Assembly (NCBI RefSeq): GCF_013410065.1
Contig: NZ_JACCCW010000001.1
Span: 248,001-312,000 of the forward strand
Reading direction: 5' to 3'
DNA: 64,000 bases
Source of the DNA: Granulicella arctica
Lineage (GTDB): Bacteria > Acidobacteriota > Terriglobia > Terriglobales > Acidobacteriaceae
Position numbers and translations under genes: made by a program. The first letter of the stretch is position 1; each line of letters begins with the position of its first letter. Below the pieces are notes generated by a model. That model did not search any database. It was not told where the DNA came from and worked only from the letters and a program-made list of their open reading frames with translations. Shown piece by piece: positions 21,000 through 51,814 of this stretch.

Positions 21000-23018
21000 T
21001 TGAAAAAGCAGTTGACTATCTTTGCGTTGCTACTTAGCTGTATCTCTCTACCTTTTACTGCAATGGCTGTTTTGCCCAGTGTCCATCATCCTCTCGATGC
21101 GCTTACGCCGCAGGAGTACTGGACGATTTACCAAACCCTGCGCAGCGAAGGCCATGTGCATGAGAAGACATTGTTCGCCAGCGTTCTGCTGCATGAACCA
21201 GATAAGCAGGCGGTGTTACAGTGGACGCCCGATAGCCCTATCGACCGCAAAGCAGATGTAGTTTTGCTCGATGAAGGTAAGTCGTACGCTGCAATCGTGG
21301 ATATCACGTCGAAGAAGGTTGACGACTTTCATGCTCTGAAAGGGGAGCACGCACCTTACACGGACACAGAAGAGCATGAGGTGGGCGAAGCGATCAAGCA
21401 CGATCCGCGGATCATCGAAGCGCTCAAGAAGCGCGGCATTACGGATCTGAGACACGTGGAGTGCTATCCAGAGCCCGCAGGTTATATCGCCCTGCCGGAG
21501 CAAAAGGATCCGGAGGACCGTATTGCGTGGGGCGGCTGCGCCGACTCAGAGGGTGCGATCTCCGGCTCGTGGGATCGCGAGGTGTCCGGACTCTTTTTCG
21601 TCGCCGACATGAAGACCAAGAAGGTGCTTCGCGTCTCTGATTTCGGCAGTGTTCCACGCACACCGACGACGGGAATCTATGACGAGGTAGGCGGTGAGGC
21701 GTTACCCGGAACAAAGCCCATCACCGTCATGCAGACGGAAGGGCCTAGCTTCACCATCGACAAGGGTCTTGTGTCGTGGCAGAACTGGCGTTTCCGTTTT
21801 CGGCTTGATCCACGCCAAGGACCTGTGTTGAGCACCGTTGGCATTGAAGACAACGGCAAGCTTCGCTCAGTCATGTACGAGGGTGCACTGTCTGAGATGT
21901 ATGTGCCGTATCAAGATCCGGAAGAGACCTGGAACTCGCACGTGTTTATCGATGGCGGCGAGTACTTCATGAATACAGGCCTCGGTCTTATCAAGCCTTT
22001 GATCGCGGGCGTCGACTGCCCCGATTATGCAACTTTCTTTTCCGGATTTTTCTATAAGGAAGATGGATCGCCGTTCGAACGGCCGCAGCTCGCTTGCCTG
22101 TTTGAGCGCACAAAGGGCGATCCTGCGTGGCGTCACAGCGACCCGAATGGCGTCTTCGGACGTCCCACGCGTGAGCTTGTACTGCGCACTGTTGCCACGG
22201 TAGGCAATTACGATTATGTGCTCGATTGGCGCTTTGGTCAGGATGGCGTGATTACCGGTGCAGTTGGCGCTACGGGCATTCTTGAGGTGAAACCTGTTTC
22301 AGATACGGACGTGAGTAAGGGGATGTCCGATGGACTGGCGGATAAGAATGCTCCGGGAGGGCCGGTGGAGTTTGGCCATCTCGTTGCACCTGGAACCGAT
22401 GCCGTCAATCACGATCACTTCTTCTCGTTCCGATTGGATCTCGACGTTGACGGACCGAAGAACTCGTTCATGGCGGATAAGCTTGTGCAGTACAAGATCC
22501 CCTCGAACAAGACCGACTATGGACGCCATGTGATCTGGGCGATGAAGCCGACGATGCCGATGACGGAGAGCGAGGCCAAGATGGATATTAGCCTGCAGCA
22601 TCCTTCGATGTGGCGCTTCGTTAGCTCGGATACGAAGGGACCTCAGGGCTATCCGACTAGCTATGAAATCATGGCTGGCCAGACGGGGACGTCGTTGCTG
22701 CCTTCCGATGAGTGGCCGCAGAAGCGTGCTGGCTTCTCGGAGCACCAGCTTTGGGTGACGCCTTATGAGCCCACCGAACGCTTTGCCGCTGGCACTTATG
22801 TCAGTGGTAGCCGTGGCACGGATGGCGTGGCGATCTGGACGAAGAAGAACCGTTCCATCATGGACACAGATATTGTGGCCTGGTACACGGTTGGATTTCA
22901 CCATACCCCTCGCACGGAAGACTGGCCGCAGATGCCCATCATGTGGCATGAGTTCCAGATTCGTCCGTTCGACTTCTTCACGAAGAACCCCGCACTCGAT
23001 CTACCGATGAAGCCGTAG
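21000..23018 (+). CDS. Secreted copper-containing primary-amine oxidase
   Basis: A 672-residue exported enzyme that oxidises primary amines to aldehydes, releasing ammonia and hydrogen peroxide. A signal peptide (about 1-23) is followed by the copper amine oxidase core. The TPQ-precursor tyrosine is Y404 in TVGNYDYV (T-x-x-N-Y-D). The copper ligands are H471 and H473 (HDHFF) and H650 (MWHEFQIRP), and the probable catalytic base is D318 in FIDGGEY. Length fits the family, similar to TynA. The start is a TTG with AAGGGG about seven bases upstream. A hairpin and then a TonB receptor gene follow on the same strand, suggesting amine release and substrate uptake are linked. Confidence 0.93.
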   Translation: MKKQLTIFALLLSCISLPFTAMAVLPSVHHPLDALTPQEYWTIYQTLRSEGHVHEKTLFASVLLHEPDKQAVLQWTPDSPIDRKADVVLLDEGKSYAAIVDITSKKVDDFHALKGEHAPYTDTEEHEVGEAIKHDPRIIEALKKRGITDLRHVECYPEPAGYIALPEQKDPEDRIAWGGCADSEGAISGSWDREVSGLFFVADMKTKKVLRVSDFGSVPRTPTTGIYDEVGGEALPGTKPITVMQTEGPSFTIDKGLVSWQNWRFRFRLDPRQGPVLSTVGIEDNGKLRSVMYEGALSEMYVPYQDPEETWNSHVFIDGGEYFMNTGLGLIKPLIAGVDCPDYATFFSGFFYKEDGSPFERPQLACLFERTKGDPAWRHSDPNGVFGRPTRELVLRTVATVGNYDYVLDWRFGQDGVITGAVGATGILEVKPVSDTDVSKGMSDGLADKNAPGGPVEFGHLVAPGTDAVNHDHFFSFRLDLDVDGPKNSFMADKLVQYKIPSNKTDYGRHVIWAMKPTMPMTESEAKMDISLQHPSMWRFVSSDTKGPQGYPTSYEIMAGQTGTSLLPSDEWPQKRAGFSEHQLWVTPYEPTERFAAGTYVSGSRGTDGVAIWTKKNRSIMDTDIVAWYTVGFHHTPRTEDWPQMPIMWHEFQIRPFDFFTKNPALDLPMKP

Positions 23019-37950: not shown

Positions 37951-40900
37951 ATGAATCGCAATGCACTGTACAGCTTTCTATGGACAACAGCTACGCTTGC
38001 CGCTTGCACTTTGTTTCCCATTGGGGCTCGCGCACAGATCTCACCGGCAGTCCGGCTTATCACTACATCGATCAACGATGGGGATCGTGTTCTGCTGGCA
38101 AATGGAATCCGTCCGCAGCTAAGGCTGTCGAAGGATCTCGGAGCCGTGTTGGGCTCTACGCCCGCTCGCCACATACTGATGGTGCTCGCTCGCAGTGACG
38201 CCCGCCAACAGGCGCTGACGCAGTACCTGGGCGATGTGCAGAACCCAGCTTCGTCGAGCTTCCACAAATGGCTGACGCCTGCGGAGTACGGCTCCATGTT
38301 CGGCGCGTCCACAGACGACATCGTCACGCTCTCATCGTGGCTTCAGTCCAAAGGATTCACGGTGGAGAAAGTCTCAGCCGCAGCCAATCTCATTCAGTTC
38401 TCCGGCAACGTTGCACAGATGCAGAAAGCCTTCAACACAGAGATCCATGCTCTCTCGGTGGACGGGGAGCAGCATATGGCCAACACCACGTCACCGGAAG
38501 TGCCACGTGCGTTCTCGTCTGCGGTGACAGGTCTGGTAGGGCTCGACGACTTTCATCCGCGCCCCACATTACAGAAGGGGCCGAGCGCAAAGTTTGACCC
38601 CAACACGAAGACCATTCGCCCGGACCTCACACTCTTTTCCAGCTCAGGCACTCCGTATCTCTACATGAACCCGGCAGACGCGGCAACGATCTATAACGTA
38701 CCGAACAGCCTGCTGAACCCGAACTATTCGGGGACAACCTATGACGGCACCGGCGTTACAGTTGGTGTCGTGGGCGACTCGAATGTCGACCTGACTCCTG
38801 TGAGCATCTACCGCGAGGACTTCCTCGGCGAGACCTCGGCCAATGTTAACTTGCCGACGGTCATCATTGACGGCGCAGACCCCGGTATCAATGGTGACGA
38901 GGTCGAAACCTTCCTTGATCTCGAAGTGCTTGGCGGCATTGCACCCAAAGCGAAGATCAACTACTACGCGTCCGATGATAGCGACCTTTCGGCTGGCCTG
39001 TTCAATGCAATCGAACGAGCTGTGGATGACAACACGGTCAGCGTCCTCAGTATCAGCTTCGGCCAATGCGAGGCAGGATTGGGAAACGCGACGAATCAGT
39101 TTCTCGCGGAGAAGTATCAACAGGCCGCGGCGCAGGGCATCACGATCACGGTTTCCTCTGGCGATAGCGGAGCCGCAGGGTGCGATTCGGATGCTTCTAC
39201 GACAGCGACGCAGGGCCTTGCGGTGAACGGGCTCTCTTCCACGCCATACAACATTTCTGTTGGCGGTACGGACTACGACGTGCTTGCCACAAACTTCACC
39301 AACTATGTACAGGACTCCTTGAATGGCGTTTCCTATAGCGGTACGGCACCATATTGGCGTACCGCTCTGAGTTACATCCCGGAGCAGCCGTGGAATGATT
39401 CCACGACTACGAACGGTGCGCTGGCTAATAATTCTCCGCTCTCCAACGGCGGCGTGACCGACATTATCGGTGGCGGTGGTGGAGTGAGCACCGTCTACAG
39501 TAAACCTGCGTTCCAGACTGCGCTGACGCCAGCGGACGGCAAACGCGACTTGCCTGACGTTGCGTTCATGGCGGGCAACGGCTTATACGGCGCAGTATGG
39601 CTCGTCTGCGGCAGTGGTTCGCTATCCTTTGGACCCGATTGCCAGATGAGCAACGGCAACTTTACTTCAAGCACGACCTTCTCGGGCGCTGGTGGCACCT
39701 CAGCGGCGACGCCCGCATTTGCCGGTATGCTTGCGCTCGTTGTGCAGGCCACGGGCTCTCGTCTCGGCCAAGCGAACGACGTGCTCTACCAACTTGCAGC
39801 TAGCAAGTACAGCACGGTTTTTCATGACGCGACTACGGGCAACAACGCCGTGGTATGTACCAGCGGCAGCCCCAATTGCGGCTCCAACGGCTTCACGACT
39901 GGCTATGATGCAGGCACTGGCTATGATCTCGCGTCGGGCCTCGGCAGCGTCGACGCGTCGGCTATGCTCGCCAACTGGAACTCGGTGGCGGCAAGCGGCA
40001 CATCCACATCGCTGGAGATCGACGGCTCCACGTCGCCGGTAAGCGTCACTCATGGCACCAGTCTGAACTTCAGCGTTGGTGTTACTCCTTCCACAGCGAC
40101 CGGCTCAGCTGCGCTTGTTACCACGCAGATAGCCGGCGCAGCCCAACCGATCAATAATGGACAGATCACCGTCCCTCTCAGTACTGGTTCGGGGGCTCTC
40201 AGCTACAACGGCCTGCCGGGAGGAACGTATACCGTCTATGCGCGTTACAGTGGCGACACGGCTGATGCCTCGAGCAGCTCAACACCTATCAGCGTGAACA
40301 TCGCAGCCGAGGCCAGCAGCTCGCTCCTGACGGTGAATGCATACGGTACTGCGGGTGGCAGTGCGCCGCTCCCCAGCCTCACCGCTATTCCTTATGGCTC
40401 CTATATCTTTGCGGACGCGTCCGTCTACGGTACGGCAGAAGGCTATGATGCCTCACTCGGCCTTGCGACTGGATCCTTCACTCTTATGGACAACGGAGCC
40501 ACGCTCGGCACTGCGCCGATGAGCAGCGGCAACGTCGCTTCATTTCCGAGTATGGCCGCGGGTGTGTACCCGTTCGCGGTAGGCACTCACAAAATGGTTG
40601 CTACGTACCCAGGGGACGCCAGCTACAAGCCCAACACCAGCAATGCAGTGCAGTTCACTGTCATCAAGGGAGCTACGAGCGCGCATGTTTTCCCTGCAAG
40701 TGCGACGCTGAAGTCGACGGCTAGCGAGGTGGTGCAGGTCGACGTCGGAACCAGCAGCTTCGCTTTGGCTCCAACCGGCACCATCACGCTGATGGCAAAT
40801 GGTGTCACTCTTGGCAGCAGCTCTAACTTCTTCGCCGGCTCTTCAAACGATGGCACGGCTGTCTCGTATGTGAACTTCACCGTGCAGGGCAGCCAGCTTC

Positions 40901-41889
40901 CTGCCGGCCCCAACACACTATCGGCGACCTATACCGGCGATAGCAGCTATCAGGGATCGTCGGCTACGGGAAGCATTACAGTCTCGCAGGCAGGCTTCAC
41001 ATTACAGGCTGGCGCGATTGCGATCGCCGCTGGAAGCGGCACAGGCAATACGGCCATCATCTCCGCGGCACCCACCAACGGCTTTGCCGGAGTGATAAAC
41101 CTGATCTGCGCCGTCACCTCGACCCCCACCAATGCAACTAGCCCCATCACGTGCAGTGTGCCCTCGACGATCAACATCACAGGCACCGGTGCAGCGACCG
41201 GGACGCTGACGGTCGCTTCGACGGCCTCGACTACCGGTGGCAGCTACACCGTGACTATCTCCGGCGCGGACGCGACAACCGGTAAGATCACGGCCACCAC
41301 CACTACGCAAGTAACAGTTGCGGCGGTGGCGAGTATCGCGCTCACCAATAGCGGAGCCCTCAGTATCCAGGCGGGTGCCACTAGCGGTAACACAGCGACG
41401 ATCAATGTCACACCAACGGCCGGATACACCGGTACGGTGGGTCTTTCGTGCGCCATCGCCAGCGCTCCAACGGATGCGGTCAACCCTGTCACCTGTGCGA
41501 TAGCACCTTCTTCGGTGAGCATCACGGGAGCGGCCGCGGCTACTTCGACGCTGACGATTAGCTCCACGGCTCGCACGACTAGCTCACTCTACCGGTCGCA
41601 CGAGCTATTGCGCGGTGTCAGTGGGACGATCCTCGCCGTCAGCGTCTTCTTCCTTGTACCGATACGGCGCCATCGTCACCTGAGGTTGCTCGCGATGCTG
41701 GTTGTGCTGGTATCGTTGGGCTCGCTCTTAGGGTGCGGGGGTGGTGGCAGTTCAGCCGCGAGCAGCGGCGGCAGCGGTAGTAACCCATCCAGCTCCGGTA
41801 CGACGGCCGGCACCTATGTCATCACGGTGACCTCGTCGGCGGCGGGTGTGAGCGCGCAAACCACCATCGTCAACGTGACGGTCAACTAG
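37951..41889 (+). CDS. Secreted S53 (sedolisin/pro-kumamolisin) peptidase with Ig-like repeats and lipobox-like tail
   Basis: A 1312-residue exported acid serine peptidase. Signal peptide to about residue 29 (GARAQ). The pro-kumamolisin activation domain (about 50-205) is followed by the catalytic domain with the expected triad: E319 and D323 (DEVETFLDLEVLGG), oxyanion D405 (SSGDSGAAGC) and S584 (GGTSAATPAFAG). Several bacterial Ig-like modules follow (SYTVYARYSGDTADASSS type). The last 110 residues hold a hydrophobic segment, a basic loop (PIRRHRHLR) and a second hydrophobic segment. This ends SLLGC (C1262), then a Gly/Ser-rich linker and a short beta-rich tail ending NVTVN. A good AAGGAG lies before the ATG. 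The neighbouring gene has a similar tail. Confidence 0.92.
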   Translation: MNRNALYSFLWTTATLAACTLFPIGARAQISPAVRLITTSINDGDRVLLANGIRPQLRLSKDLGAVLGSTPARHILMVLARSDARQQALTQYLGDVQNPASSSFHKWLTPAEYGSMFGASTDDIVTLSSWLQSKGFTVEKVSAAANLIQFSGNVAQMQKAFNTEIHALSVDGEQHMANTTSPEVPRAFSSAVTGLVGLDDFHPRPTLQKGPSAKFDPNTKTIRPDLTLFSSSGTPYLYMNPADAATIYNVPNSLLNPNYSGTTYDGTGVTVGVVGDSNVDLTPVSIYREDFLGETSANVNLPTVIIDGADPGINGDEVETFLDLEVLGGIAPKAKINYYASDDSDLSAGLFNAIERAVDDNTVSVLSISFGQCEAGLGNATNQFLAEKYQQAAAQGITITVSSGDSGAAGCDSDASTTATQGLAVNGLSSTPYNISVGGTDYDVLATNFTNYVQDSLNGVSYSGTAPYWRTALSYIPEQPWNDSTTTNGALANNSPLSNGGVTDIIGGGGGVSTVYSKPAFQTALTPADGKRDLPDVAFMAGNGLYGAVWLVCGSGSLSFGPDCQMSNGNFTSSTTFSGAGGTSAATPAFAGMLALVVQATGSRLGQANDVLYQLAASKYSTVFHDATTGNNAVVCTSGSPNCGSNGFTTGYDAGTGYDLASGLGSVDASAMLANWNSVAASGTSTSLEIDGSTSPVSVTHGTSLNFSVGVTPSTATGSAALVTTQIAGAAQPINNGQITVPLSTGSGALSYNGLPGGTYTVYARYSGDTADASSSSTPISVNIAAEASSSLLTVNAYGTAGGSAPLPSLTAIPYGSYIFADASVYGTAEGYDASLGLATGSFTLMDNGATLGTAPMSSGNVASFPSMAAGVYPFAVGTHKMVATYPGDASYKPNTSNAVQFTVIKGATSAHVFPASATLKSTASEVVQVDVGTSSFALAPTGTITLMANGVTLGSSSNFFAGSSNDGTAVSYVNFTVQGSQLPAGPNTLSATYTGDSSYQGSSATGSITVSQAGFTLQAGAIAIAAGSGTGNTAIISAAPTNGFAGVINLICAVTSTPTNATSPITCSVPSTINITGTGAATGTLTVASTASTTGGSYTVTISGADATTGKITATTTTQVTVAAVASIALTNSGALSIQAGATSGNTATINVTPTAGYTGTVGLSCAIASAPTDAVNPVTCAIAPSSVSITGAAAATSTLTISSTARTTSSLYRSHELLRGVSGTILAVSVFFLVPIRRHRHLRLLAMLVVLVSLGSLLGCGGGGSSAASSGGSGSNPSSSGTTAGTYVITVTSSAAGVSAQTTIVNVTVN

Positions 41890-41950
41890 CCCAATTCTCA
41901 AGCTTGTAGGTTTCTTTGCGAATTAACAGATGAAATTCAGGAGGTTGTGT

Positions 41951-44900
41951 ATGTTGCATAGACTGTTCCACGGTGCGAAGACTCTCGTGCTGCTCTCCTC
42001 GATACTTTCGGCATTCGCCATTGCGCAGAAGCAGCCGCCACCCACTCGCACGCAGACGCCACCCGTGCCTGGAGCGCTTCAACACTTCCAAACACCTGCG
42101 CAGCAGGTACTTCTTCCATTCCTGAAGGCACATCCCATGCAGACTGAAAGCAGTGGCGAGTTCCACGCCCAGGATGCGACCAGCTACGTCGCTTCGCCGA
42201 ATTTCGGCGGCTATGTGAACGCGCCTCTCTATGACGCACGTACTACCGCATCGCTTGATACCGGCTCCTTCAATAACGGCGTGACGGTGGAGCTCACTGC
42301 TGACTTTAACAAAGACGGTAAACCGGACATTGCCGTTCTACAGCAGGATGGCACTATGAATGTGTTGCTCGGCAACGGGAGCGCCGGTCTGTCCGCGCCG
42401 GTAAGTTACTACAATCCGAACTATCTAACATCAAGCGTTAACAACGCCTACGCCGTTGACATTAACGATGATGGATTTACTGACATCATCGGGTTCGACT
42501 ACAACAATAATACGATGATCACGTGGCTGAACCTTGGCAACGGTACGTTCAATGCCGCGGTTACCACCTTGCTTGATACCACCTATGGTTATCCGAATGA
42601 CGTTCTTGTCCAGGACGTGAATGGCGATGGCAAGCCCGACCTCATCTTCACCATGTCGCAGCGAGTTTCTCTTACCAGCGCAAACATCTTCCTGGAAATA
42701 ATGCCCGGCAAAGGCGATGGCACCTTCTCAACGCCAACCACCTCGCAAGTACAGGAGTTCTCGGTTGCCGCTTCGGTGGTTCTTCCCTCTTACAACGGCG
42801 TTGCGGTAGGCGATATTAATGACGACGGCAAGCTCGACATTGCGGTCGCCATCGATGAACGGCTCTCGCAATCTACTGGACAATACGTGGTCACCACAGC
42901 ACTTGGCAATGGCGATGGTACGTTTGGCCAGCTCGGCACGACCATTCCTGTCTCCGTCCCGGCCACGTCATCCAATGGCTTTACCGTGGACTATAACAGC
43001 ACTGGTGTGCAGTTCGTCGATTTGAACAATGACGGCAAGCTCGACGTAGCAACGGACATCAACGGAGCTCTGATGGCTGCGCTGGGACAGGGCAATGGAT
43101 CATTCAGCACCGCAGTATCGAGCACGTTCAGCCAGATTGTCGGTGTAACGCAGATGCTCTTCGCTGACCTCAACGGCGACGGCAAGCCCGATCTCATTGC
43201 TGGTGGAGACACACTCGGCATCTATCTGGGAAACGGCGATGGAACCTTTGCAGCACCATTAACTACCGCGCAGTATGTCGTAGATCCGACAACAGAGCAA
43301 GGAATCGCGCTTGCTGATTTCGATGGTGATGGGATTCCGGACGTTGCTCAACTTGGCGGAGACTATAAGCAGGTAGCTCTGTTTTTCGGCAACGGCAAGG
43401 GCCAGCTGCACGGAGCTCCGCTCATTACCGCTGCCAGCGATCCGGAGGGCGTCGATTGGAAGATGGAAGTTACTGGGAAGTACACCTCCAGCGGATACAG
43501 CGATGCGGTCTTCCTCCATTCCATCGCAACAGGGGTGGAAATGCTGACAGGAGTCAACGATGGTAAGGGCAACTTTACCTTTGTGCAGTCGCTCGCCGAC
43601 GGTGTGCCATCGGACCTACAGTACATCCAATCAATCCACGCTGACTTCAACGGCGATGGCAAGGAAGATCTGGTGTTTACAGGGGCAGCTGGCAATGTGA
43701 CGATTGCGCTGTCTAAGGGCGACGGCACATTTGCGGCACCCGTGTCCGTAAATCTTCCTTCCACACTTGCCTGCCCGGTATACTACGCCGCGGCTGGCGA
43801 CTTGAACGGCGATGGCAAGACTGATCTGGTCATCCCCTATGGCGGTGATTTGGCCTGTGGCTCTGCGGCTGGCAGCTCGTCGGGTTACTACGTCCTATTG
43901 GGCAATGGCGACGGCACGTTCTCCACACCTGCGTTTACGACAACAGGCACGGAGCTGTACAGCGCGACGCTCGGCGACATCAACGGCGACGGCAAGCTCG
44001 ACATCGTCCTCGACGATGCGCCGTTTGTCTCTGGCTCGGGCTTTAGCATCTTGCTAGCGACGGGCAATGGCGACGGGACCTTCGGCTCCCCGAACACCAT
44101 TCTGTCTAACTATCTCGTCAGCACTGTTGCTATCGGCGACATCAACGACGACGGCAAGGCCGACATCGTGCTCAGCGCAGAAGAGGTGGAGGGAAGCAGC
44201 GTGGCAACCGGAGGAATTCTCACCATCACCGGAAACGGGGACGGAACCTTCAACCCACCTTCGCTCATCGCGGGCGGCAACTTCTTTTTTGGTATGCAGC
44301 TGGCAGACATGAACACTGATGGCAATCCCGACATCGTTGCCACGCTGTACTCCACCAATGGCCAGCCGAATGATTACTACGGCATGGTGACACTCCTTGG
44401 GTTGGGCAACGGTCAGTTCACCGCGCCGGTCAATCAGTTGGAAAGTCTCGCCAGCACTCTTCCGCAGGTTGGCAATTTTTATAACGACAACGCGCTGGAC
44501 GTAATGACACAGACCGGCTACGGTCCGGCGCTCTTCGTGGGCCAAGGCTCCTCCACCTTGACACTGACTGCTTCTACTCCGTCGGCTGTTTTTGGCTCGA
44601 GCGAAACCTTGACAGCAACGATCACGCCTGGAATAAGCACTCGTCCTGCACCGACAGGCTTAGTCTCGTTCTATGACGGCAGTACGCTGCTGGGCAAGGC
44701 AGATGCGACGAATGGTGCCGCAACCTTTACGACAGCTTCGCTCGCTGTCGGTGTACATAGCGTCACGGCGACCTATGCTGGTGATGCGAACTTCAACCCC
44801 GCAATCTCCTCGCCGACGGTTATCACGATTAGCGCGCTCTTGCCGGCGTTGTCGCTAACAGGCACACCTGCGACGCTCTCCATTAGCAGCGGGGCAAACG

Positions 44901-45370
44901 GTATCGTTACGCTCAACGTCGCGGCAAATGCGAGCTTCAGCGGCACGGTCAACCTGGCATGCTCGGGTGCTCCCTCGAACACGACCTGTACGGTCAACCC
45001 CGGAAGCGTTACACTCGCGGCGGGACAGTCAGCAATGGCAACGCTGGTCATCGGCACCACGACGACTCTCGCCGAGGTGCACGGTTCGGCGCCGCCCTGG
45101 GGGACGACGGGTGCTACAGCGGGGTTTGCGATGCTATGCGGTGTCTTCTTCGGCCGCCGCAAGCGCATGCGGATGTATGTTGCGCTCGGCCTCGGCGTCA
45201 TGCTTTCACTCGGAACATTGCTCGCTGGTTGCAATAACGGAAGCACGGCGGCGACCACGACAACCACTGCTACTGGCCCGACCAGCTTCACGGTTACAGT
45301 CACAGCCACACCGGCTAGCGGAAGCACAGCATCGCCGGAAACCACAACGGTCGACGTCACGGTTAACTAA
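41951..45370 (+). CDS. Exported FG-GAP/VCBS repeat protein with lipobox-like tail
   Basis: A 1139-residue exported protein. After a signal peptide (about 1-26), about 13 calcium-binding repeats of the form DxNxDGxxDxxx occur at regular spacing (for example DVNGDGKPDLIF, DLNNDGKLDVAT). These probably form one or two integrin-like beta-propellers. Two Ig-like modules follow (about 860-960, 965-1040), then a tail with hydrophobic segment, RRKRMRMY loop and second hydrophobic segment ending LLAGC (C1094), then a linker and TTTVDVTVN. The ATG at 41951 has AGGAGG six bases upstream, while the ATG at 41930 has none. It follows the S53 peptidase by 61 bases and may be co-expressed; binding of surface polymers is inference. 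Confidence 0.9.
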   Translation: MLHRLFHGAKTLVLLSSILSAFAIAQKQPPPTRTQTPPVPGALQHFQTPAQQVLLPFLKAHPMQTESSGEFHAQDATSYVASPNFGGYVNAPLYDARTTASLDTGSFNNGVTVELTADFNKDGKPDIAVLQQDGTMNVLLGNGSAGLSAPVSYYNPNYLTSSVNNAYAVDINDDGFTDIIGFDYNNNTMITWLNLGNGTFNAAVTTLLDTTYGYPNDVLVQDVNGDGKPDLIFTMSQRVSLTSANIFLEIMPGKGDGTFSTPTTSQVQEFSVAASVVLPSYNGVAVGDINDDGKLDIAVAIDERLSQSTGQYVVTTALGNGDGTFGQLGTTIPVSVPATSSNGFTVDYNSTGVQFVDLNNDGKLDVATDINGALMAALGQGNGSFSTAVSSTFSQIVGVTQMLFADLNGDGKPDLIAGGDTLGIYLGNGDGTFAAPLTTAQYVVDPTTEQGIALADFDGDGIPDVAQLGGDYKQVALFFGNGKGQLHGAPLITAASDPEGVDWKMEVTGKYTSSGYSDAVFLHSIATGVEMLTGVNDGKGNFTFVQSLADGVPSDLQYIQSIHADFNGDGKEDLVFTGAAGNVTIALSKGDGTFAAPVSVNLPSTLACPVYYAAAGDLNGDGKTDLVIPYGGDLACGSAAGSSSGYYVLLGNGDGTFSTPAFTTTGTELYSATLGDINGDGKLDIVLDDAPFVSGSGFSILLATGNGDGTFGSPNTILSNYLVSTVAIGDINDDGKADIVLSAEEVEGSSVATGGILTITGNGDGTFNPPSLIAGGNFFFGMQLADMNTDGNPDIVATLYSTNGQPNDYYGMVTLLGLGNGQFTAPVNQLESLASTLPQVGNFYNDNALDVMTQTGYGPALFVGQGSSTLTLTASTPSAVFGSSETLTATITPGISTRPAPTGLVSFYDGSTLLGKADATNGAATFTTASLAVGVHSVTATYAGDANFNPAISSPTVITISALLPALSLTGTPATLSISSGANGIVTLNVAANASFSGTVNLACSGAPSNTTCTVNPGSVTLAAGQSAMATLVIGTTTTLAEVHGSAPPWGTTGATAGFAMLCGVFFGRRKRMRMYVALGLGVMLSLGTLLAGCNNGSTAATTTTTATGPTSFTVTVTATPASGSTASPETTTVDVTVN

Positions 45371-45414
45371 GCGGTGTTCAAGCTGCACAGCAGAATCGCT
45401 CCTTGATAACAGCC

Positions 45415-45442
45415 AGAGCGGCCTCAGGATAGAGGCCGCTCT
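45415..45442 (+). terminator. Hairpin after the FG-GAP gene
   Basis: A perfect 11-base stem AGAGCGGCCTC / GAGGCCGCTCT with a six-base loop, 45 bases after the stop. The T tract is weak, but position and strength support a transcription end. Confidence 0.7.
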
Positions 45443-45546
45443 ACTTATGAATGCGGTACCAGCTTCGACCGTGCTTGCTTTTAGCGAGGTCATTCTGACT
45501 ACTCCGAACATGCATTGGAGTTCTGCCGGTTTATGTAGTGAATGCG

Positions 45547-45584
45547 AAAAAGGCTGCGGAATTTTCCTCTGGAAGACCGCAGCC
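45547..45584 (-). terminator. Terminator of the siderophore receptor gene
   Basis: On the minus strand GGCTGCGG pairs with CCGCAGCC and is followed by TTTTT, 17 bases past the receptor stop. A classical intrinsic terminator. Confidence 0.85.
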
Positions 45585-45600
45585 ATGGCAAAGATTCGCA

Positions 45601-48006
45601 TCACCATCTATAGCGGACGGTTCCATACACGGTTCGCTTCATCCCGAAGTAACAGCCGCTGGTGCTGAAGCAGGAAGCTATATAGGTTCGATCACCCAGG
45701 TTGGTCGCATTCACCTGCAACTGTACTCCATGCAGAACTGGCTGATCGCTGTTGAAGTCGTAATGGAGAGCAGCATCGAAGAGCGTTGCTCCGGGGACTT
45801 TGAACGAGTTCACATTGTCACCCCAACTTGCGCCAACAAATCTGCTTCCGCCGCTCAGACCGGTGCCGCGGAGCAACGCGAACGGAAGAGTGTAATCAAG
45901 CCAGAAAGACGCGGTGTTGAGAGGAACACTGTATTGATACTTTCCCTGAGTGGAAGAGGTGATCCCGTCGATGCCGATCCCCGTGATATTCGATTTGCTG
46001 TATTTCGAACTGGTGTAGGCGTAGGTTGCGATTGCATTGAGATGGCGCGCGAGGCTAGTGTGCGCCTGGAACTCAGCACCGCGCGACCGAATCTCTCCGA
46101 CGGGAATGCTGAAATTGGGGTTGGTGGGATCGGTGGTCCCAACATTCTGCTGCGCAAGATCATAGACCGCGGCAGTAACAAGAAGGTTGGTGCGATCCGG
46201 TTGGTACTTCAAGCCTCCTTCGTACTGGCTTCCAGTTGTAGGTGGCAGAGCTGTGCCAGCAGCCGTAATGCCCAGATCAGGTTGAAAGGACTTGGCATAG
46301 CTAAAGTAGGGCGCGAACCCATGAGGCAGAAGATAAGAGACTCCTGTCCGCCAAGTGAATTTGTTGTCGTTTTGATTCGTTGTGCTTCCGTTGGTGACAT
46401 CGTTGTAGGTGAGCCAATCCTGGCGTCCTCCAAAGGACGCACGAAGACGTCCAACTGCGATTTGGTCTTGAAAGTAAATGCCTGCCTGTTGGCTTGTCGT
46501 GAACTCGATGCCTGAAATCTCAGGTACGGAAATCGTTTGATAGTAGACGGGGTGAAAGACATTGATTGGCGGTTCGTTGACTGAGCCCCAGTTCCAGTGA
46601 TCCCGATAGTGACGGTAGTTCACACCGACCAGAAGCGTATGGCGAAAAGTGCCGGTACGAAGCTGTTTGACGACGCGATTATCGGAGAGGATTGAATCGA
46701 AGGTCGTGCGACGAATAAAGGAATATCGATCGAGGGTTGCGTTATCGGATTCAAAGTTCAGAGGCCAGATCATGTTCGCGTTGTTCTTGCTTGTGGTGTA
46801 GCGGAAGTCCTGCTCGATTCTCCAGTCGTGGTCGAACGCGCGAATGAACGCATCTCCCAACTGGAGGAACGATTGCTTCGTCTGATTGAAGTTTGGATCT
46901 CCAGAGAAGAAGCCGAACGCAATCTTGCCGTTCGGATTTGGTAGGGCTGTGCCTAACGCCGGCACATAGGCATAAGCACCAACAGACGGATTGTAGGTGT
47001 AGTTCGACAGAAGAGCGAGGTTCGTCTTGTCATTCGGAATCCAACTCAGTGCCGGAGCGATCGCGAGTCTCTTCGCATCGATGAACCAGGTCTGCGTCCC
47101 TTCGGTAAATCCGACACCTGTCACCCTATAGAGGAGATGTGGGCTCTTGAAAGGTCCGCTGAAGTCGAACATGCCCTGATACCGGCCGAAGCTGCCGAAA
47201 CCGATCTGGAGCTCTCGCAACGTAGACGCCATTGGCCGCTTACTCTCGACATTGACGATACCTCCAGGGTTGGCCTGCCCATAGAGCACGGATGAAGGGC
47301 CGGCAAGAATCTCGAGCCGCTGATAGAAGTAAGAGTCCAGGGCGTTGTTTCCGTTGGCATCGTCCTGCAATCCGTTCAGATAAACCTCCGGAGCGAAGCC
47401 CCGTAACAGCAAGCTGCCTGCGCCCCAGAATGTCGAGGTTGCACCCTGCGATTCGGCGACAACTCCTGGGCTATATCGTAGTGCCTCGTTGAGGCTTTGG
47501 GGTTGCTGCGCGTCCAACTGATCTCGGGTCACAACAGAGATCGACTGCGGAGTCTCAAGAAGCGGCGTATTTGTTTTCATTGCGGAGTCACCATCACTCG
47601 CAACGTATCCTGCTTCCGTCTGAACGGTGACAGTGCTGCCTGCATTTTGCACTGTGAGCGTGACGTCGACGGACGGTGATTCAGTCCCAAAGTGCAGGAC
47701 CTTCTGACAGGCCGTGAATCCCGCCGCTTCGACACGGAGCAAAAAATCTCCCGGGGGAACTTGGATCACGAATCGTCCTGCGCCATCCGTGCGTGCCTGA
47801 TACATGCTGGCACCGCACTGTAGGAAGACACTCGCCGATGTCACCCGGGCTTCGGTGGAATCGGACACTGTCCCATTCATGGGACGCCGTAGGTCGCCAG
47901 CCGATGGACCACATGGCGGAGGAATTTCTTTTGTTTGGCCATGAGCAAGTGCACTCACGGAGAGCAGAGAAGCAGCTGCAAGCGTACGCCAGGAGTTTGA
48001 AATCAT
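45601..48006 (-). CDS. TonB-dependent siderophore-type receptor
   Basis: An 801-residue outer-membrane receptor of the FhuA-like class. Signal peptide to about residue 23 (ALAHGQ). A short carboxypeptidase-regulatory-like domain (about 40-115; FVIQVPPGDFLLRVEAAGF) precedes the plug, which starts PLLETPQSISVVTRDQLDAQQP, an almost perfect match to the siderophore-receptor plug consensus. LLLRGFAPEVYLNGL and RLEILAGPSSVLYGQANPGGIVNVESK follow. The barrel ends in TVRYRW with a terminal aromatic residue. The ATG at 48006 (AAGG five bases upstream) places the signal peptide correctly; longer forms from 48021 or 48045 are possible. Iron-siderophore uptake is the family role; the ligand is unknown. 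Confidence 0.93.
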   Translation of the reverse strand: MISNSWRTLAAASLLSVSALAHGQTKEIPPPCGPSAGDLRRPMNGTVSDSTEARVTSASVFLQCGASMYQARTDGAGRFVIQVPPGDFLLRVEAAGFTACQKVLHFGTESPSVDVTLTVQNAGSTVTVQTEAGYVASDGDSAMKTNTPLLETPQSISVVTRDQLDAQQPQSLNEALRYSPGVVAESQGATSTFWGAGSLLLRGFAPEVYLNGLQDDANGNNALDSYFYQRLEILAGPSSVLYGQANPGGIVNVESKRPMASTLRELQIGFGSFGRYQGMFDFSGPFKSPHLLYRVTGVGFTEGTQTWFIDAKRLAIAPALSWIPNDKTNLALLSNYTYNPSVGAYAYVPALGTALPNPNGKIAFGFFSGDPNFNQTKQSFLQLGDAFIRAFDHDWRIEQDFRYTTSKNNANMIWPLNFESDNATLDRYSFIRRTTFDSILSDNRVVKQLRTGTFRHTLLVGVNYRHYRDHWNWGSVNEPPINVFHPVYYQTISVPEISGIEFTTSQQAGIYFQDQIAVGRLRASFGGRQDWLTYNDVTNGSTTNQNDNKFTWRTGVSYLLPHGFAPYFSYAKSFQPDLGITAAGTALPPTTGSQYEGGLKYQPDRTNLLVTAAVYDLAQQNVGTTDPTNPNFSIPVGEIRSRGAEFQAHTSLARHLNAIATYAYTSSKYSKSNITGIGIDGITSSTQGKYQYSVPLNTASFWLDYTLPFALLRGTGLSGGSRFVGASWGDNVNSFKVPGATLFDAALHYDFNSDQPVLHGVQLQVNATNLGDRTYIASCFSTSGCYFGMKRTVYGTVRYRW

Positions 48007-48045
48007 AGACACCTTTCCATGCATCCGAAGGCAGTCACGATCCAT

Positions 48046-48391
48046 CTATCATGAGATAATCGTCAGCCTTCGGGTTATCGATCTCAGAGCCCTCGCGGTG
48101 CTTCGCCAAAAGACTGCCGCGGAGTTCCCATATACGACCCAATTGGTCTTATTTAGAATAACGGAGAAGAGACGACTGTGCTCCGCGTAAGGAGCCACGT
48201 TCTACTTAAATCGGACCATGGCGGAGCACTTCAAAGTGCCACGAATACTTACAGACAGTTCCGCGTCGTATTTTGGCGATGGCAAAGGACTACCCGCGCA
48301 GTATGTCGGGTATCTTGAGGTGCTTCCCGGCTGTAGTAGTCTGCTATGCCTCGCGCATCGTGGCAGACGGTGGGAAGCACCATCGCTCAGG
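48046..48391. other. Intergenic region with a long compound hairpin
   Basis: The gap holds no convincing gene. At 48226-48239 is the palindrome GCACTTCAAAGTGC. At 48319-48381 an imperfect hairpin is seen: outer stem GGTGCTTCCC / GGGAAGCACC, inner stem GTCTGC / GCAGAC and innermost ATGC / GCAT. It starts 11 bases beyond the stop of the downstream minus-strand gene and could be a transcript end or a REP-like element. Confidence 0.5.
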
Positions 48392-51300
48392 TCAACTTGT
48401 AACCATAACGGAGACGGTCGTAGTGGAAGGTTGAACCAATCTACTGCTTCCTGACAAAGTCAAGGTGTAGGTTCCGGTAGGGGGCAGTGTAGGCGCACTG
48501 CCGTTCCTGGCTCCGCTTCCGCAACCGTTTATTACAACAAATGAGATGAATGTTCCCAGAGCCAGTACGACGCAGACAGCCGGCCGCCGCGGCCTTCTGA
48601 AAAACAGGAATGCAAGACCTCCAGACAGCATGGATAGCCCGGCTTGCTGAATGAACGAGGATTTCGACTGCGCTCCTTGGCTGTGTGCGAGGGCGGATGT
48701 CACGGCAATCGACACGGTGACATTGCTGGGCGAAGAGCCCACGGTTGCGGTCGACGGAAGACTACAGGTGATGAAGCTCTGAGGGCTGGAGCAACTGAGA
48801 GCGACGGTTCCTGCGAGTCCATCTCCTGGCGTAAGGGCAAGCTGGACAGTAGTTGAGCTGCCCGCTTGGAGTGACACGTTGTCCGGCGCCGGTGTGAGCG
48901 TGAGTGACTGATTAACGGCTGCGGCTCCTGTACCGGTCAATGCAATCGTCTGCGCGGTCGAATTCGCGGATGTTTTGAGATTGAAGGTTGCGGACCGTGC
49001 GCCGGTCGACTGAGGCTTGAAGGTGAAGGTGAAACCGCATGAAGCGTTGACGGCCAGCGTGGCGCTGCACGTGGTGGCGTAGGTGAAGTCCGAAGCATTT
49101 GTACCCATGATGTTGGTTGTTCCGATCAACAGTGGACCGGTGCCGGAGTTCTGCAAGGTAACTGTTTGCCCAGCAGAAGATGAGGCGACTACCGTTGAAC
49201 TGAACGCGACCGAAGAGGCGCTCAGGGTTGAGGTGGGCAGGTACTGGAAGAGTGCGACTGCGCCACCTGCTGGTACCGAGACGCTGGTTGTGGTCGCCAG
49301 GTTGTAGGTGGTGCCGGAGACCAGGTCGGTGGCGATGTCGCCCGAGGTCTGCATATCGGGGGGCAGCGTCATGGTCGCCGCGTTCGATTGCCAGTTCAAG
49401 CCCACCAGGTAGCTGCCGTAACGTGCCACGTACAGTGTTCCGAACGAGCCCGAGGTATAGTTGCCGGAGGCTCCTGTAGCCGCGCTGGCCGGCATCTCGA
49501 CGTTAGCGATGCGGTCCATCGTCGCGGTCGTGTCGTGCACCCGTGCCAGGTTATTGACGCACTCCTTCGAAGCGGAGGGGATGCCGCTGCTGTGCCACAT
49601 GAGGGGACGCCAGTTGAGCACCATGGCCAGCTTCTCGCCGTTGTTCTGGATCGTGATGGTGCTGCCGGTGGGATCGGCCCACACGCCGTTGCCATGCGCC
49701 GTCTCGTTCAGGAACGTAACACCGCTGAGGTCCGACTCCGAGTTCACCATGTTGCACATCGTCACATAGTCCGTGTACCAGCGCAGGTAATTGTCCACCG
49801 TGCCGTCCCCGTTGTCCCCGAACGCCGGCATATTGTTCCACGCTCCGGTAGCCTCCATCGATTGGATAATGCCGTTCGCCTGTTCCAGGTAGAACGCGTG
49901 AATCGCATAGGGATCGTTGAACTCGGCCGAGGCGATATAGAACGTTCCCGCGTTGATCTCTCCGAGATTAAGATTCTTGCGGAAGGTGAGCGTCTCCTCC
50001 TCACGCAGCGTGTTCGCGTAGCCCGAGCCAGAGGTTGTCAACGAAGGATAGATGAAGTTAGAAAACGCATGGACCGTATTGAGTGCCACATCGCGCACCG
50101 GATGCGAGCTGGACGTCTCGATCCCATTGTCGTTCAGGATCTTTGCCAGCTTCACCAGATAGTTGGCACCATCCCATCCATAACTGCCGTCGTAGCTGCC
50201 GTTGCCGGTGCCGTGGAACTCGAGGCTCAGTCCTCCGTCGCTGACCCACACGCCGCCATACTGGTTGGTCGTAAGCCCCGCGACCACGTTCAGGTAGTTG
50301 CTGTACATGGCGGCGTTGCTCTGTGCCAGGCTGGTCCCGTAGATCTTATCCAGCGCCCGCAGAGCCAGGTTCGCGTAGACATACGCTATGGCCTGGAGTT
50401 GGTCCGTGTTCGGAGAGTGTCCATGACCGCTCGCGCTGGTCAGGAAGTTGATGTGGTTGACCAGCATCGTCTGGTAGGCCTGGTAGCGCAGGACCCCCGG
50501 CTCGAGCGAGCTGCTGATCGGCTGGTTGAGCGCAGCAAGGAAGGAGGAATCGTTCTGCATCAGTGTGATCGTCGAACCAAGGGACCATGTACCTGCGCCT
50601 TCGAGCACACTGCACGGTGCATTGGTGCGCCCATAAGGATTGGACGAGGAGGCCGAGGTCGCGCCCACACCGGCCCACGCCGTCATGCCGCCCCAGCAGC
50701 CGTTCAGCGACTGCATATAGGAGTAGGCATCGAGTGCGGCGACGATCGCCTGTTCCGTCGTGCTGTTCTGATAGAAGCTGCTCAGGAGGTTCGGCGTGGC
50801 ATAGGCGTATGCCAGCGAGTCAAGCCGATTCATCGGAGCATTGTTGCTGACGCTGGTGTCCACGGCCGCGTTGTTCAGCCACTGCGCGGTGGTGTAGCTG
50901 TCGGTGGGATGCTTGTAGGTGTCGAAGTAGCCGATGATCTGTACCGGTACCGTGCCCGCGTTCACCGCCGCCGTCCAGGACGAGCCATACACCTGGTATT
51001 TCTCCTCCATGTTCAGGTAGCTCGTCATGCTTTTCTGGATCGCCGAGAAGTACGCGCTGTTGTAGGTCGCCGGCGTGGCTGCTGCCGCGCTCGGAGCCGA
51101 GCCCTGCGGGTCGGTCGCAGCTACCGTCAGGTAGGGATCGGTGGGGGTGAACGCCGCGTAGATCGGCCGCGAGGTCGCGCCGGCGGGCAGGTCCGTCGTA
51201 GCCGTGCTGGGATCCAGGTAGTAGTTGTACGCCTGAGCCGCATTGAGCGTTAGGGTCACCGTGCTGTTCCCTTGCGTCATCGCCATCGGAATCGCGATCG

Positions 51301-51814
51301 TCTCATACACGAACCGGCCCGGCAGGACCGGCGTGTTGTACTTCTGAAAGTCGATCTCCGGCTGACTGGTGGAGTAGTAGTTGCTCACCAGATAGCCCTG
51401 TTCTGGCGTGTAGAGGTAGATTACGTTGAGGATCGTGTCCGATCCCCAGACCTGAATCGTCAGGTAGTTCTGTACGCTCGGGCTGCACGCCATCGTGAAC
51501 GTCAGCACCTCGTTGTCCGCAGGGTTCCCGACGTTCGCCGCAGTGGCCGAAGGCGCGATCTCGCGATAGGTCAAGCCCAGCGCGCCACTGCCGGTGGGTT
51601 GGCTCATGTTCACGAAACTGTGGCTGCTCTCCGAGTACGCGTCATGGGCGGTATCGCCAAAATTGATCCGGTCCAACGCATTCGAACTGCTAAAGATCGT
51701 CTGAGCTCGAAGTTGTACTGAGCACGCAAAACAGAGGAAGAATGCAATCTTCAATAGAAGATTTTTGACGACAGATATGGATAGAAACCTCGGATCGATA
51801 TACGAGTAGAGCAT
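48392..51814 (-). CDS. Exported probable carbohydrate-active protein with lipobox-like tail (family not recognised)
   Basis: An 1140-residue protein. The N-terminal hydrophobic stretch (about 17-38) acts as signal peptide. Residues about 45-150 form a beta-rich module (INFGDTAHDAYSESSHSF...LTIQVWGSD) resembling carbohydrate-binding modules attached to glycosidases such as GH127. About 230-740 is mostly alpha-helical with many Trp, Tyr, His and Asp residues (for example SLEFHGTGNGSYDGSYGWDGANYL, WYTDYVTMCNM). The pattern suggests an alpha/alpha-toroid lyase or hydrolase, but I do not recognise the family. Ig-like modules follow, including an ASPM/HYDIN-type one (DFTYATTCSATLAVNASCGFTFTF). The tail has two hydrophobic segments with an RRPRRP loop, C1098 in NGCGSG, and a short beta tail. 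The start has no Shine-Dalgarno signal. Confidence 0.8.
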   Translation of the reverse strand: MLYSYIDPRFLSISVVKNLLLKIAFFLCFACSVQLRAQTIFSSSNALDRINFGDTAHDAYSESSHSFVNMSQPTGSGALGLTYREIAPSATAANVGNPADNEVLTFTMACSPSVQNYLTIQVWGSDTILNVIYLYTPEQGYLVSNYYSTSQPEIDFQKYNTPVLPGRFVYETIAIPMAMTQGNSTVTLTLNAAQAYNYYLDPSTATTDLPAGATSRPIYAAFTPTDPYLTVAATDPQGSAPSAAAATPATYNSAYFSAIQKSMTSYLNMEEKYQVYGSSWTAAVNAGTVPVQIIGYFDTYKHPTDSYTTAQWLNNAAVDTSVSNNAPMNRLDSLAYAYATPNLLSSFYQNSTTEQAIVAALDAYSYMQSLNGCWGGMTAWAGVGATSASSSNPYGRTNAPCSVLEGAGTWSLGSTITLMQNDSSFLAALNQPISSSLEPGVLRYQAYQTMLVNHINFLTSASGHGHSPNTDQLQAIAYVYANLALRALDKIYGTSLAQSNAAMYSNYLNVVAGLTTNQYGGVWVSDGGLSLEFHGTGNGSYDGSYGWDGANYLVKLAKILNDNGIETSSSHPVRDVALNTVHAFSNFIYPSLTTSGSGYANTLREEETLTFRKNLNLGEINAGTFYIASAEFNDPYAIHAFYLEQANGIIQSMEATGAWNNMPAFGDNGDGTVDNYLRWYTDYVTMCNMVNSESDLSGVTFLNETAHGNGVWADPTGSTITIQNNGEKLAMVLNWRPLMWHSSGIPSASKECVNNLARVHDTTATMDRIANVEMPASAATGASGNYTSGSFGTLYVARYGSYLVGLNWQSNAATMTLPPDMQTSGDIATDLVSGTTYNLATTTSVSVPAGGAVALFQYLPTSTLSASSVAFSSTVVASSSAGQTVTLQNSGTGPLLIGTTNIMGTNASDFTYATTCSATLAVNASCGFTFTFKPQSTGARSATFNLKTSANSTAQTIALTGTGAAAVNQSLTLTPAPDNVSLQAGSSTTVQLALTPGDGLAGTVALSCSSPQSFITCSLPSTATVGSSPSNVTVSIAVTSALAHSQGAQSKSSFIQQAGLSMLSGGLAFLFFRRPRRPAVCVVLALGTFISFVVINGCGSGARNGSAPTLPPTGTYTLTLSGSSRLVQPSTTTVSVMVTS

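What the first reader, a model, noticed from the sequence alone, without database searches (positions are those of the whole stretch)
41601..48655. Shared C-terminal tail with internal lipobox-like cysteine in three unrelated exported proteins
The S53 peptidase, the FG-GAP protein and the 1140-residue enzyme-like protein end in the same way. Each has a hydrophobic segment, an Arg/Lys-rich loop and a second hydrophobic segment ending in a lipobox-like cysteine (SLLGC, LLAGC, INGC). A Gly/Ser/Thr linker and a short beta-rich tail ending in alternating V/T follow. The cysteine is 50, 45 and 42 residues from the C-terminus. The basic loop puts the second segment in the topology of a lipoprotein signal peptide, but at the wrong end of the protein. 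This suggests an undescribed sorting or anchoring module, perhaps with internal signal peptidase II cleavage (inference).
Basis: partly seen in the sequence, partly recalled or inferred. Interest (0 to 1): 0.82.

Follow-up and report, generated by a model that had tools for sequence, protein, structure and literature searches.

The report
Lipobox hairpin inside split Ig domain
Three exported proteins of a soil acidobacterium end in an immunoglobulin-like domain cut in two by a membrane hairpin with an invariant, lipid-acceptor-like cysteine, probably a way to fasten big secreted enzymes to the cell envelope from the wrong end.

Summary
The three C-termini are one homologous module, already catalogued (untested) in NCBIfam as NF058595, 'lipo-invert putative C-terminal anchoring domain'. 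Its first strands lie before the hairpin; hairpin, cysteine and linker are inserted between the fifth and sixth strands. An intact copy lies next door in the S53 peptidase, and two AlphaFold models rebuild one Ig domain across the insert. The cysteine is invariant: 118 of 118 genome tails, all with Gly/Ala/Ser at -1, and 317 of 317 hairpins found without using cysteine (sets may overlap). The genome has 9 copies over the curated cut-off; 49 of 50 listed genomes of the family have it, as do Aminicenantes and two Burkholderiales records. Best reading: an internal type II signal peptide, lipidated and cut by housekeeping Lgt and LspA, whose lipidated stub stays bound by completing the Ig fold. 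Anatomy is shown by sequence and prediction; lipidation, cleavage and final membrane are inferred.

The parts
37951..41889 (+). Exported S53 (pro-kumamolisin) peptidase, 1312 aa, with Big_3_5 domains and lipo-invert tail
   Evidence: Pfam PF09286, PF16640; NF058595 52.6 bits, residues 1197-1312
40993..41322 (+). Intact Ig-like repeat directly upstream of the split one (residues 1015-1124): natural control without insert
   Evidence: BLASTP 50% identity, E 3e-23 over the first part; colinear alignment resumes after a 75-residue insert
41332..41571 (+). First strands of the split Ig-like domain of the S53 protein (residues 1128-1207)
   Evidence: AlphaFold2 model, block means of pLDDT 87-97; coordinates
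41614..41736 (+). Inserted hairpin: segment 1 (1222-1237), basic loop IRRHRHLR (1238-1245), segment 2 (1246-1261), lipobox cysteine C1262
   Evidence: helices in model
41737..41886 (+). Gly/Ser linker (1263-1283) and last two strands of the split Ig-like domain (1284-1312)
   Evidence: model strands 198-208 and 211-222, block means of pLDDT 89-96
41930..45370 (+). Exported FG-GAP/VCBS repeat protein, 1146 aa, with lipo-invert tail
   Evidence: Pfam PF13517, PF16640; NF058595 31.6 bits on protein scan, 37.8 bits in genome scan
44846..45064 (+). First strands of the split Ig-like domain of the FG-GAP protein (973-1045)
   Evidence: alignment of tails; coordinates
45101..45232 (+). Inserted hairpin of the FG-GAP protein: segment 1 (1058-1075), RRKRMRM, segment 2 (1083-1100), C1101
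45233..45367 (+). Linker and last two Ig strands of the FG-GAP protein (1102-1146)
   Evidence: alignment of tails; coordinates
48392..51814 (-). Exported enzyme-like protein, 1140 aa, with a choice-of-anchor D domain and lipo-invert tail
   Evidence: NF012200 choice_anch_D, residues 860-952, and NF058595, residues 1031-1137; 37.3 bits in genome scan
48695..48910 (-). First strands of the split Ig-like domain of the 1140-aa protein (969-1040)
   Evidence: AlphaFold2 model, block means of pLDDT 95-97
48521..48643 (-). Inserted hairpin of the 1140-aa protein: segment 1 (1058-1072), RRPRRPA, segment 2 (1080-1097), C1098
   Evidence: helices 109-122 and 130-147 of model
48395..48520 (-). Linker (1099-1111) and last two Ig strands (1112-1140) of the 1140-aa protein
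   Evidence: model strands 165-174 and 181-190, block means of pLDDT 88-97

Best explanation
The tail is a C-terminal anchoring module built from an ordinary Ig-like domain into which an internal type II (lipoprotein) signal peptide has been inserted, between strands five and six. The protein is exported by its N-terminal type I signal peptide. The first strands of the last Ig domain emerge outside the inner membrane; segment 1 then stops transfer and brings the chain back so that the Arg-rich loop lies in the cytoplasm; segment 2 leaves again as the h-region of a lipoprotein signal peptide and presents the lipobox cysteine at the outer face. Housekeeping Lgt lipidates that cysteine and LspA cuts before it. 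The C-terminal lipopeptide (34-54 residues) then holds the protein because its two strands complete the Ig fold, so the body is tied to a lipid through beta-strand complementation rather than through its own N-terminus. Shown by sequence or prediction: insertion in the Ig domain, topology pattern, invariant cysteine, lipobox, distribution. Inferred: lipidation, cleavage, survival of the two-chain domain, final membrane.
Against: No experiment shows lipidation or cleavage. If LspA cuts, the large N-terminal part still carries segments 1 and 2 in the inner membrane, so transfer to the outer membrane needs a further, unidentified cut near segment 1; no conserved motif there was found. 20 of 118 tails miss the lipobox pattern, 11 of them by Asn or Pro at -2; the window's own INGC is one. 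Two tails (P0130, P0131) have Asn or Arg at -1. In one search the residue before the first cysteine was Gly/Ala/Ser in 66 of 72. 9 of 118 tails gave no second-part match. The intact domains were collected with half-profiles made from the tails themselves, so those calls show colinearity more than independent homology; BLASTP alone finds the second part of the S53 pair only weakly (E 0.22). 32 of the 175 long gaps are not C-terminal, probably skipped domains. Coupling evidence can be inflated by shared ancestry. Confidence of hairpin and linker in the models is low (block means of pLDDT 43-74), and Foldseek alone gave no match under 1e-3; the sialidase is tied within 1 Z with several other Ig-like rows. 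The Burkholderiales records are or may be metagenome bins.
Confidence: 0.58

Rival explanations
1. An uncleaved re-entrant transmembrane hairpin anchors the protein in the inner membrane. The cysteine is lipidated without cleavage, or not at all, and the Ig domain folds normally around the hairpin as around any loop insert.
For: Hairpin and basic loop accompany the cysteine throughout. Both linkers look flexible enough for the Ig domain to close without a cut. No second cleavage signal found.
Against: A plain hairpin would not need an invariant cysteine with Gly/Ala/Ser at -1 and mostly Gly/Ser at +2 (118 of 118 and 105 of 118). Cysteine is otherwise near background level in these proteins.
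Confidence: 0.25
2. A clade-specific C-terminal sorting enzyme, as myxosortase for MYXO-CTERM, recognises the cysteine and processes the tail, instead of LspA.
For: For MYXO-CTERM a C-terminal cysteine plus helix plus Arg cluster is cut by a CPBP protease, with lipidation proposed (PMC11980579, passages read). Segment 1 plus basic loop looks like the end of such tags.
Against: In four single-copy Aminicenantes-type loci no neighbour gene is shared by all; two genes are shared by 2 of 4 (L130, L131), a TPR protein and a DUF7948 piece, neither protease-like by Pfam. No common gene within 1.5 kb downstream in 38 loci, by eye. Occurrence in Burkholderiales records. No signature motif besides the lipobox. 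No phylogenetic profiling for proteases was run.
Confidence: 0.12
3. The module is a release device: lipidation and cleavage cut the last two strands off, and the body is freed or handed to secretion while the stub stays behind.
For: Many carriers are peptidases or repeat proteins of extracellular type: S53, subtilase, C1 peptidase, FG-GAP.
Against: The last two strands are kept as Ig strands (109 of 118 recognised by an intact-domain profile) and stay at the very C-terminus in the two own-genome proteins where a whole Big_3_5 domain follows the cysteine, as expected if they must rejoin the domain.
Confidence: 0.08

Closest known systems
NCBIfam NF058595 invert_tail (lipo-invert putative C-terminal anchoring domain)
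   Same: Same module; the model spans from the strand before the hairpin to the C-terminus and hits all three tails.
   Different: Only a profile and a name were visible; no function test and no paper found. The split-Ig architecture and strand-complementation idea are not in the name; the full curator text was not seen.
Bacterial lipoprotein signal peptide (Lgt/LspA substrates)
   Same: Basic region, Leu/Ala/Val-rich segment, small residue at -1, Cys, Gly/Ser at +2, Gly/Ser-rich linker after the cysteine.
   Different: Lies near the C-terminus behind a first hydrophobic segment, in a protein that already has a type I-like signal peptide.
MYXO-CTERM / myxosortase
   Same: C-terminal cysteine-based attachment of exported proteins; helix with Arg-rich cytoplasmic cluster (PMC11980579, passages read).
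   Different: There the order is Cys, one helix, Arg cluster at the end, without a defined lipobox and with inverted topology; here helix, Arg cluster, helix, Cys, then Ig strands.
Ig-like domain of Micromonospora viridifaciens sialidase (2BER, residues 404-502)
   Same: Same fold as both predicted terminal domains.
   Different: Contiguous; no insert between strands.

Membership tests
NF058595 invert_tail | Profile score at or above the curated cut-off of 37 bits | tested here: met
   S53 protein 52.6 bits and 54.5. FG-GAP and 1140-aa proteins 31.6 and 31.1 on the whole-protein scan (below) but 37.8 and 37.3 in the genome scan (above): met for the first, borderline for the other two.
NF058595 invert_tail | Anchoring function | not testable with these tools
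   The name says putative; needs the bench.
Lgt/LspA lipoproteins | Lipobox with Gly/Ala/Ser at -1 and Cys at +1 behind a hydrophobic segment and basic region | tested here: met
   118 of 118 for -1 and Cys; 98 of 118 for the full PS51257-like pattern, written from memory; basic loop. Of the window's three, INGC misses the full pattern.
Lgt/LspA lipoproteins | Signal peptide at the N-terminus | tested here: not met
   Cysteine lies 34-54 residues (inclusive) from the C-terminus in 107 non-redundant tails; own-genome N-termini are type I-like by eye. It may work like one, but is not an ordinary member.
Lgt/LspA lipoproteins | Diacylglyceryl modification and cleavage | not testable with these tools
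   Needs mass spectrometry.
MYXO-CTERM (TIGR03901) | Cys motif, then one helix, then Arg cluster at the C-terminal end | tested here: not met
   Order reversed; TIGR03901 not listed at E up to 1 for the three proteins.
PEP-CTERM, GlyGly-CTERM, LPXTG | Signature motif, helix, basic cluster at the extreme C-terminus (recalled) | tested here: not met
   C-terminus is two beta strands; no such NCBIfam model listed at E up to 1; no invariant column other than the cysteine in 40 tails.
Ig-like beta sandwich | Strands before and after the hairpin form one domain | tested here: met
   By prediction; by homology to intact domains.

The most novel reading that the evidence does not exclude
A protein-lipid anchor that works by split-domain complementation: LspA releases a 34-54-residue N-terminally lipidated peptide from the C-terminus of the same chain, the hairpin is removed by a second cut, and the peptide supplies the last two strands of the protein's terminal Ig domain, so that very large exported enzymes are held on a membrane, perhaps the outer one, by a non-covalently bound lipopeptide.
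Probability: 0.33. Interest if true: 0.88.

Novelty: new variant of a known kind. Interest (0 to 1): 0.7.

Why it matters
Type II signal peptides are taken to be N-terminal. An internal one placed inside a folded domain would be a new way to fasten large secreted enzymes, would explain how these Acidobacteria attach many S53 peptidases, FG-GAP and propeller proteins, and gives a concrete test (lipid label plus native two-chain domain). Predictors that look only at N-termini would miss a class of proteins that numbers 2 to 11 matches per genome in this family, 11 being the scoring limit. If cleavage is confirmed, the split Ig domain is a natural lipid-tagging scaffold.

Tried and rejected
Chance likeness of three tails: rejected. 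Confinement to this window or genome: rejected.

Cysteine conservation as an artefact of the profile: tested with a hairpin finder blind to cysteine on three protein sets and one genome-contig set; rejected. What each set was: best 120 listed of 190, all 110, best 120 listed of 577, best 80 kept of 92. Hairpins: 120 of 120, 31 of 110, 94 of 120, 72 of 80. Rows set aside: 2 of 80 loci (L175, L183) were not classified because the pattern was not refound, and 6 of 80 had no hairpin by the criterion (L219 truncated; L220 has a long loop and a lipobox-like end; L196, L198, L203, L213 show neither). In one search, 26 of 120 had no hairpin by the criterion, of which P0262, P0306 and P0325 do end in lipobox-like tails. 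P0067 and P0117 look frameshifted behind the hairpin and were counted. The protein and locus sets may overlap. The 118 genome tails are 9 of the own genome plus 109 of the strongest matches listed (29 loci and 80 further places fetched); L010 and L011 were left out because they carry an extra domain.

Conserved proline before segment 1 (a possible protease motif): alignment artefact. Dedicated neighbour gene: none shared by all four single-copy loci; two shared by 2 of 4 are a TPR protein and a DUF7948 piece; no common downstream gene by eye. Extra Lgt copies as a dedicated lipidase: the genome has 3 Lgt-like matches, but copy number does not follow the tail over 54 genomes, by eye. Pfam gave no match over its cut-off for the Ig repeat or the tails. 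PDB sequence searches gave nothing under 0.01. Literature searches without a hit on the module: (listings only); one search listed the myxosortase paper; the Haft 2024 paper on C-terminal cysteine signals is not held. One search listed papers on lipoprotein sorting; only the listing was seen. Foldseek against PDB gave no match under 1e-3.
Full report
WHAT IS THERE. Three exported proteins, an S53 peptidase (37951-41889, +), an FG-GAP/VCBS repeat protein (41930-45370, +) and an enzyme-like protein with a choice-of-anchor D domain (48392-51814, -), end alike. Each tail has a hydrophobic segment, a basic loop, a second hydrophobic segment ending in a lipobox-like cysteine (C1262, C1101, C1098), a linker and two strands. 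All three match NCBIfam NF058595, 'lipo-invert putative C-terminal anchoring domain' (52.6, 31.6, 31.1 bits on proteins against a cut-off of 37; 54.5, 37.8, 37.3 bits in the genome scan). So the module is catalogued as putative, and I found no paper on it.

The 'beta-rich tail' is the end of an Ig-like domain whose beginning lies before the hairpin. In the S53 protein an intact copy stands just upstream (residues 1015-1124). It aligns with the terminal domain at 50% identity over the first part and again after a 75-residue insert that carries the hairpin, the cysteine and most of the linker (the second part is reached by 10 of 2000 shuffles; BLASTP alone sees it only at E 0.22). Over 230 proteins the distance between the two domain parts is bimodal, 440 intact and 175 with 55-130 residues between; 143 of the 175 end at the C-terminus, the other 32 are probably skipped domains, and 100 proteins have both forms. 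A profile trained on 318 intact domains matches 118 genome tails in the first part before the hairpin in 117 and in the second part after the cysteine in 109, one of these doubtful. The intact domains were found with half-profiles made from tails, so these two counts show colinearity more than independent homology. Coupled positions between the two parts are more alike in intact and split domains than after re-pairing (r 0.218 against at most 0.076 in 60 shuffles), with the caution that shared ancestry contributes.

THE CYSTEINE. In 118 genome tails it is invariant; -1 is Gly85, Ala22 or Ser11; +2 is Gly80, Ser25, Ala8, Asn4 or Thr1; 98 fit a PS51257-like pattern written from memory, and 11 of the 20 misses have Asn or Pro at -2. 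It is the only invariant column in 40 tails with a mean column identity of 30%. To avoid circularity I searched for hairpins with cysteine given neutral hydropathy: 151 of 151 in two protein sets, 72 of 72 in named genome contigs and 94 of 94 in a third protein set have a cysteine at the end of segment 2; 19.8 of 151 were expected from composition and 22 of 151 occur at segment 1. In the proteins 243 of 245 have Gly/Ala/Ser before a cysteine there, the exceptions being P0130 and P0131; the first cysteine has it in 66 of 72. The Ig part often has its own cysteine pair (columns at 84-85% of 107 tails), and the lipobox cysteine persists in a tail without that pair (L027), so it is unlikely to be a disulfide partner (inference).

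SPREAD. The genome has 9 tails over the cut-off and 2 weaker ones. In a sample of 395 genomes of the phylum, 79 match at 1e-5 and 58 over the cut-off. By the listing, 49 of 50 genomes of the same family match (2 to 11 matches per genome, 11 being the scoring limit) and 30 of 345 elsewhere, of which 9 pass the cut-off. One strong hit per genome occurs in 4 genomes of a family whose protein is named Candidatus Aminicenantes. A scan of the named genome collection gave hairpin tails in many Terriglobia and Aminicenantes records, and in bins labelled Ideonella (1.06 Mb contig), Gammaproteobacteria (111 kb) and Rhodanobacteraceae (7.9 kb, possibly misbinned); a second Burkholderiales protein lies on a 1.6 Mb contig (P0233). 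Homologous domains in other phyla can end intact without hairpin, for example a Verrucomicrobiae S53 protein (P0235).

MECHANISM. The N-termini are type I-like signal peptides by eye in 11 of 11 own-genome members, and the loop carries the positive charge (120 proteins). With export of the body, segment 1 must stop transfer and segment 2 must leave again, which is the orientation Lgt and LspA need (established knowledge of these enzymes). LspA occurs in 60 of 60 family genomes searched, once in 58; Lgt in 54 of 54, its copy number unrelated to the tail by eye. No neighbour gene is shared by the four single-copy loci. The +2 residue is never Asp (0 of 118), which in E. coli would mean retention at the inner membrane (recalled), so outer membrane sorting is possible. 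After cleavage the stub would be too short to matter unless it stays in the Ig domain, and its strands are kept at the very C-terminus even where a whole Big_3_5 domain follows the cysteine (own-genome proteins in L127 and L128). I therefore favour anchoring by strand complementation. The weak point is that the body keeps segment 1 in the inner membrane unless a second protease acts; no motif for one was found.

COMPARISON AND VERDICT. It works like a lipoprotein signal peptide but fails the N-terminal criterion; it resembles MYXO-CTERM in using a C-terminal cysteine (PMC11980579, passages read) but with reversed order and a lipobox. The module is a catalogued, unproven family; the insertion inside a folded Ig domain and the two-chain anchor that follows from it were not found in print, in a library that lacks most subscription journals.

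Noticed in passing
L127 (own genome C2:1478200-1486000) and L128/L011 (C1:1861000-1866000): Two own-genome members have a complete Big_3_5 domain (Pfam 62.5 and 66.6 bits) between the lipobox cysteine and the two final strands; the final strands are still at the very C-terminus.
   Followed up: yes
window 41930-45370 and 48392-51814: NF058595 scores two of the three window proteins below its curated cut-off on the whole-protein scan (31.6 and 31.1 against 37), so routine annotation would likely miss them.
   Followed up: yes
P0264 (protein search): A protein with this tail is labelled MYXO-CTERM domain-containing by one source, apparently a mislabel of the helix plus Arg part.
   Followed up: no
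own genome C2:1292915, C1:1031289, C1:1665960: Three Lgt-like matches in one genome; extra copies are common in the 54 genomes searched but do not follow the tail.
   Followed up: partly
window 45601-48045 (-): FhuA/FoxA-like TonB-dependent siderophore receptor between the tail-bearing genes; no link to the module seen.
   Followed up: no
window 21000-23018 (+): Primary-amine oxidase-like protein with a possible N-terminal export signal by eye (PRK11504, 538.6 bits, below its cut-off of 651).
   Followed up: no
L178 (Ideonella bin, 1.06 Mb contig) and P0233 (Burkholderiales, 1.6 Mb contig): Lipo-invert tails on FG-GAP proteins in records labelled Betaproteobacteria, outside the module's home phylum: possible transfer, and a hint that housekeeping enzymes suffice.
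   Followed up: partly
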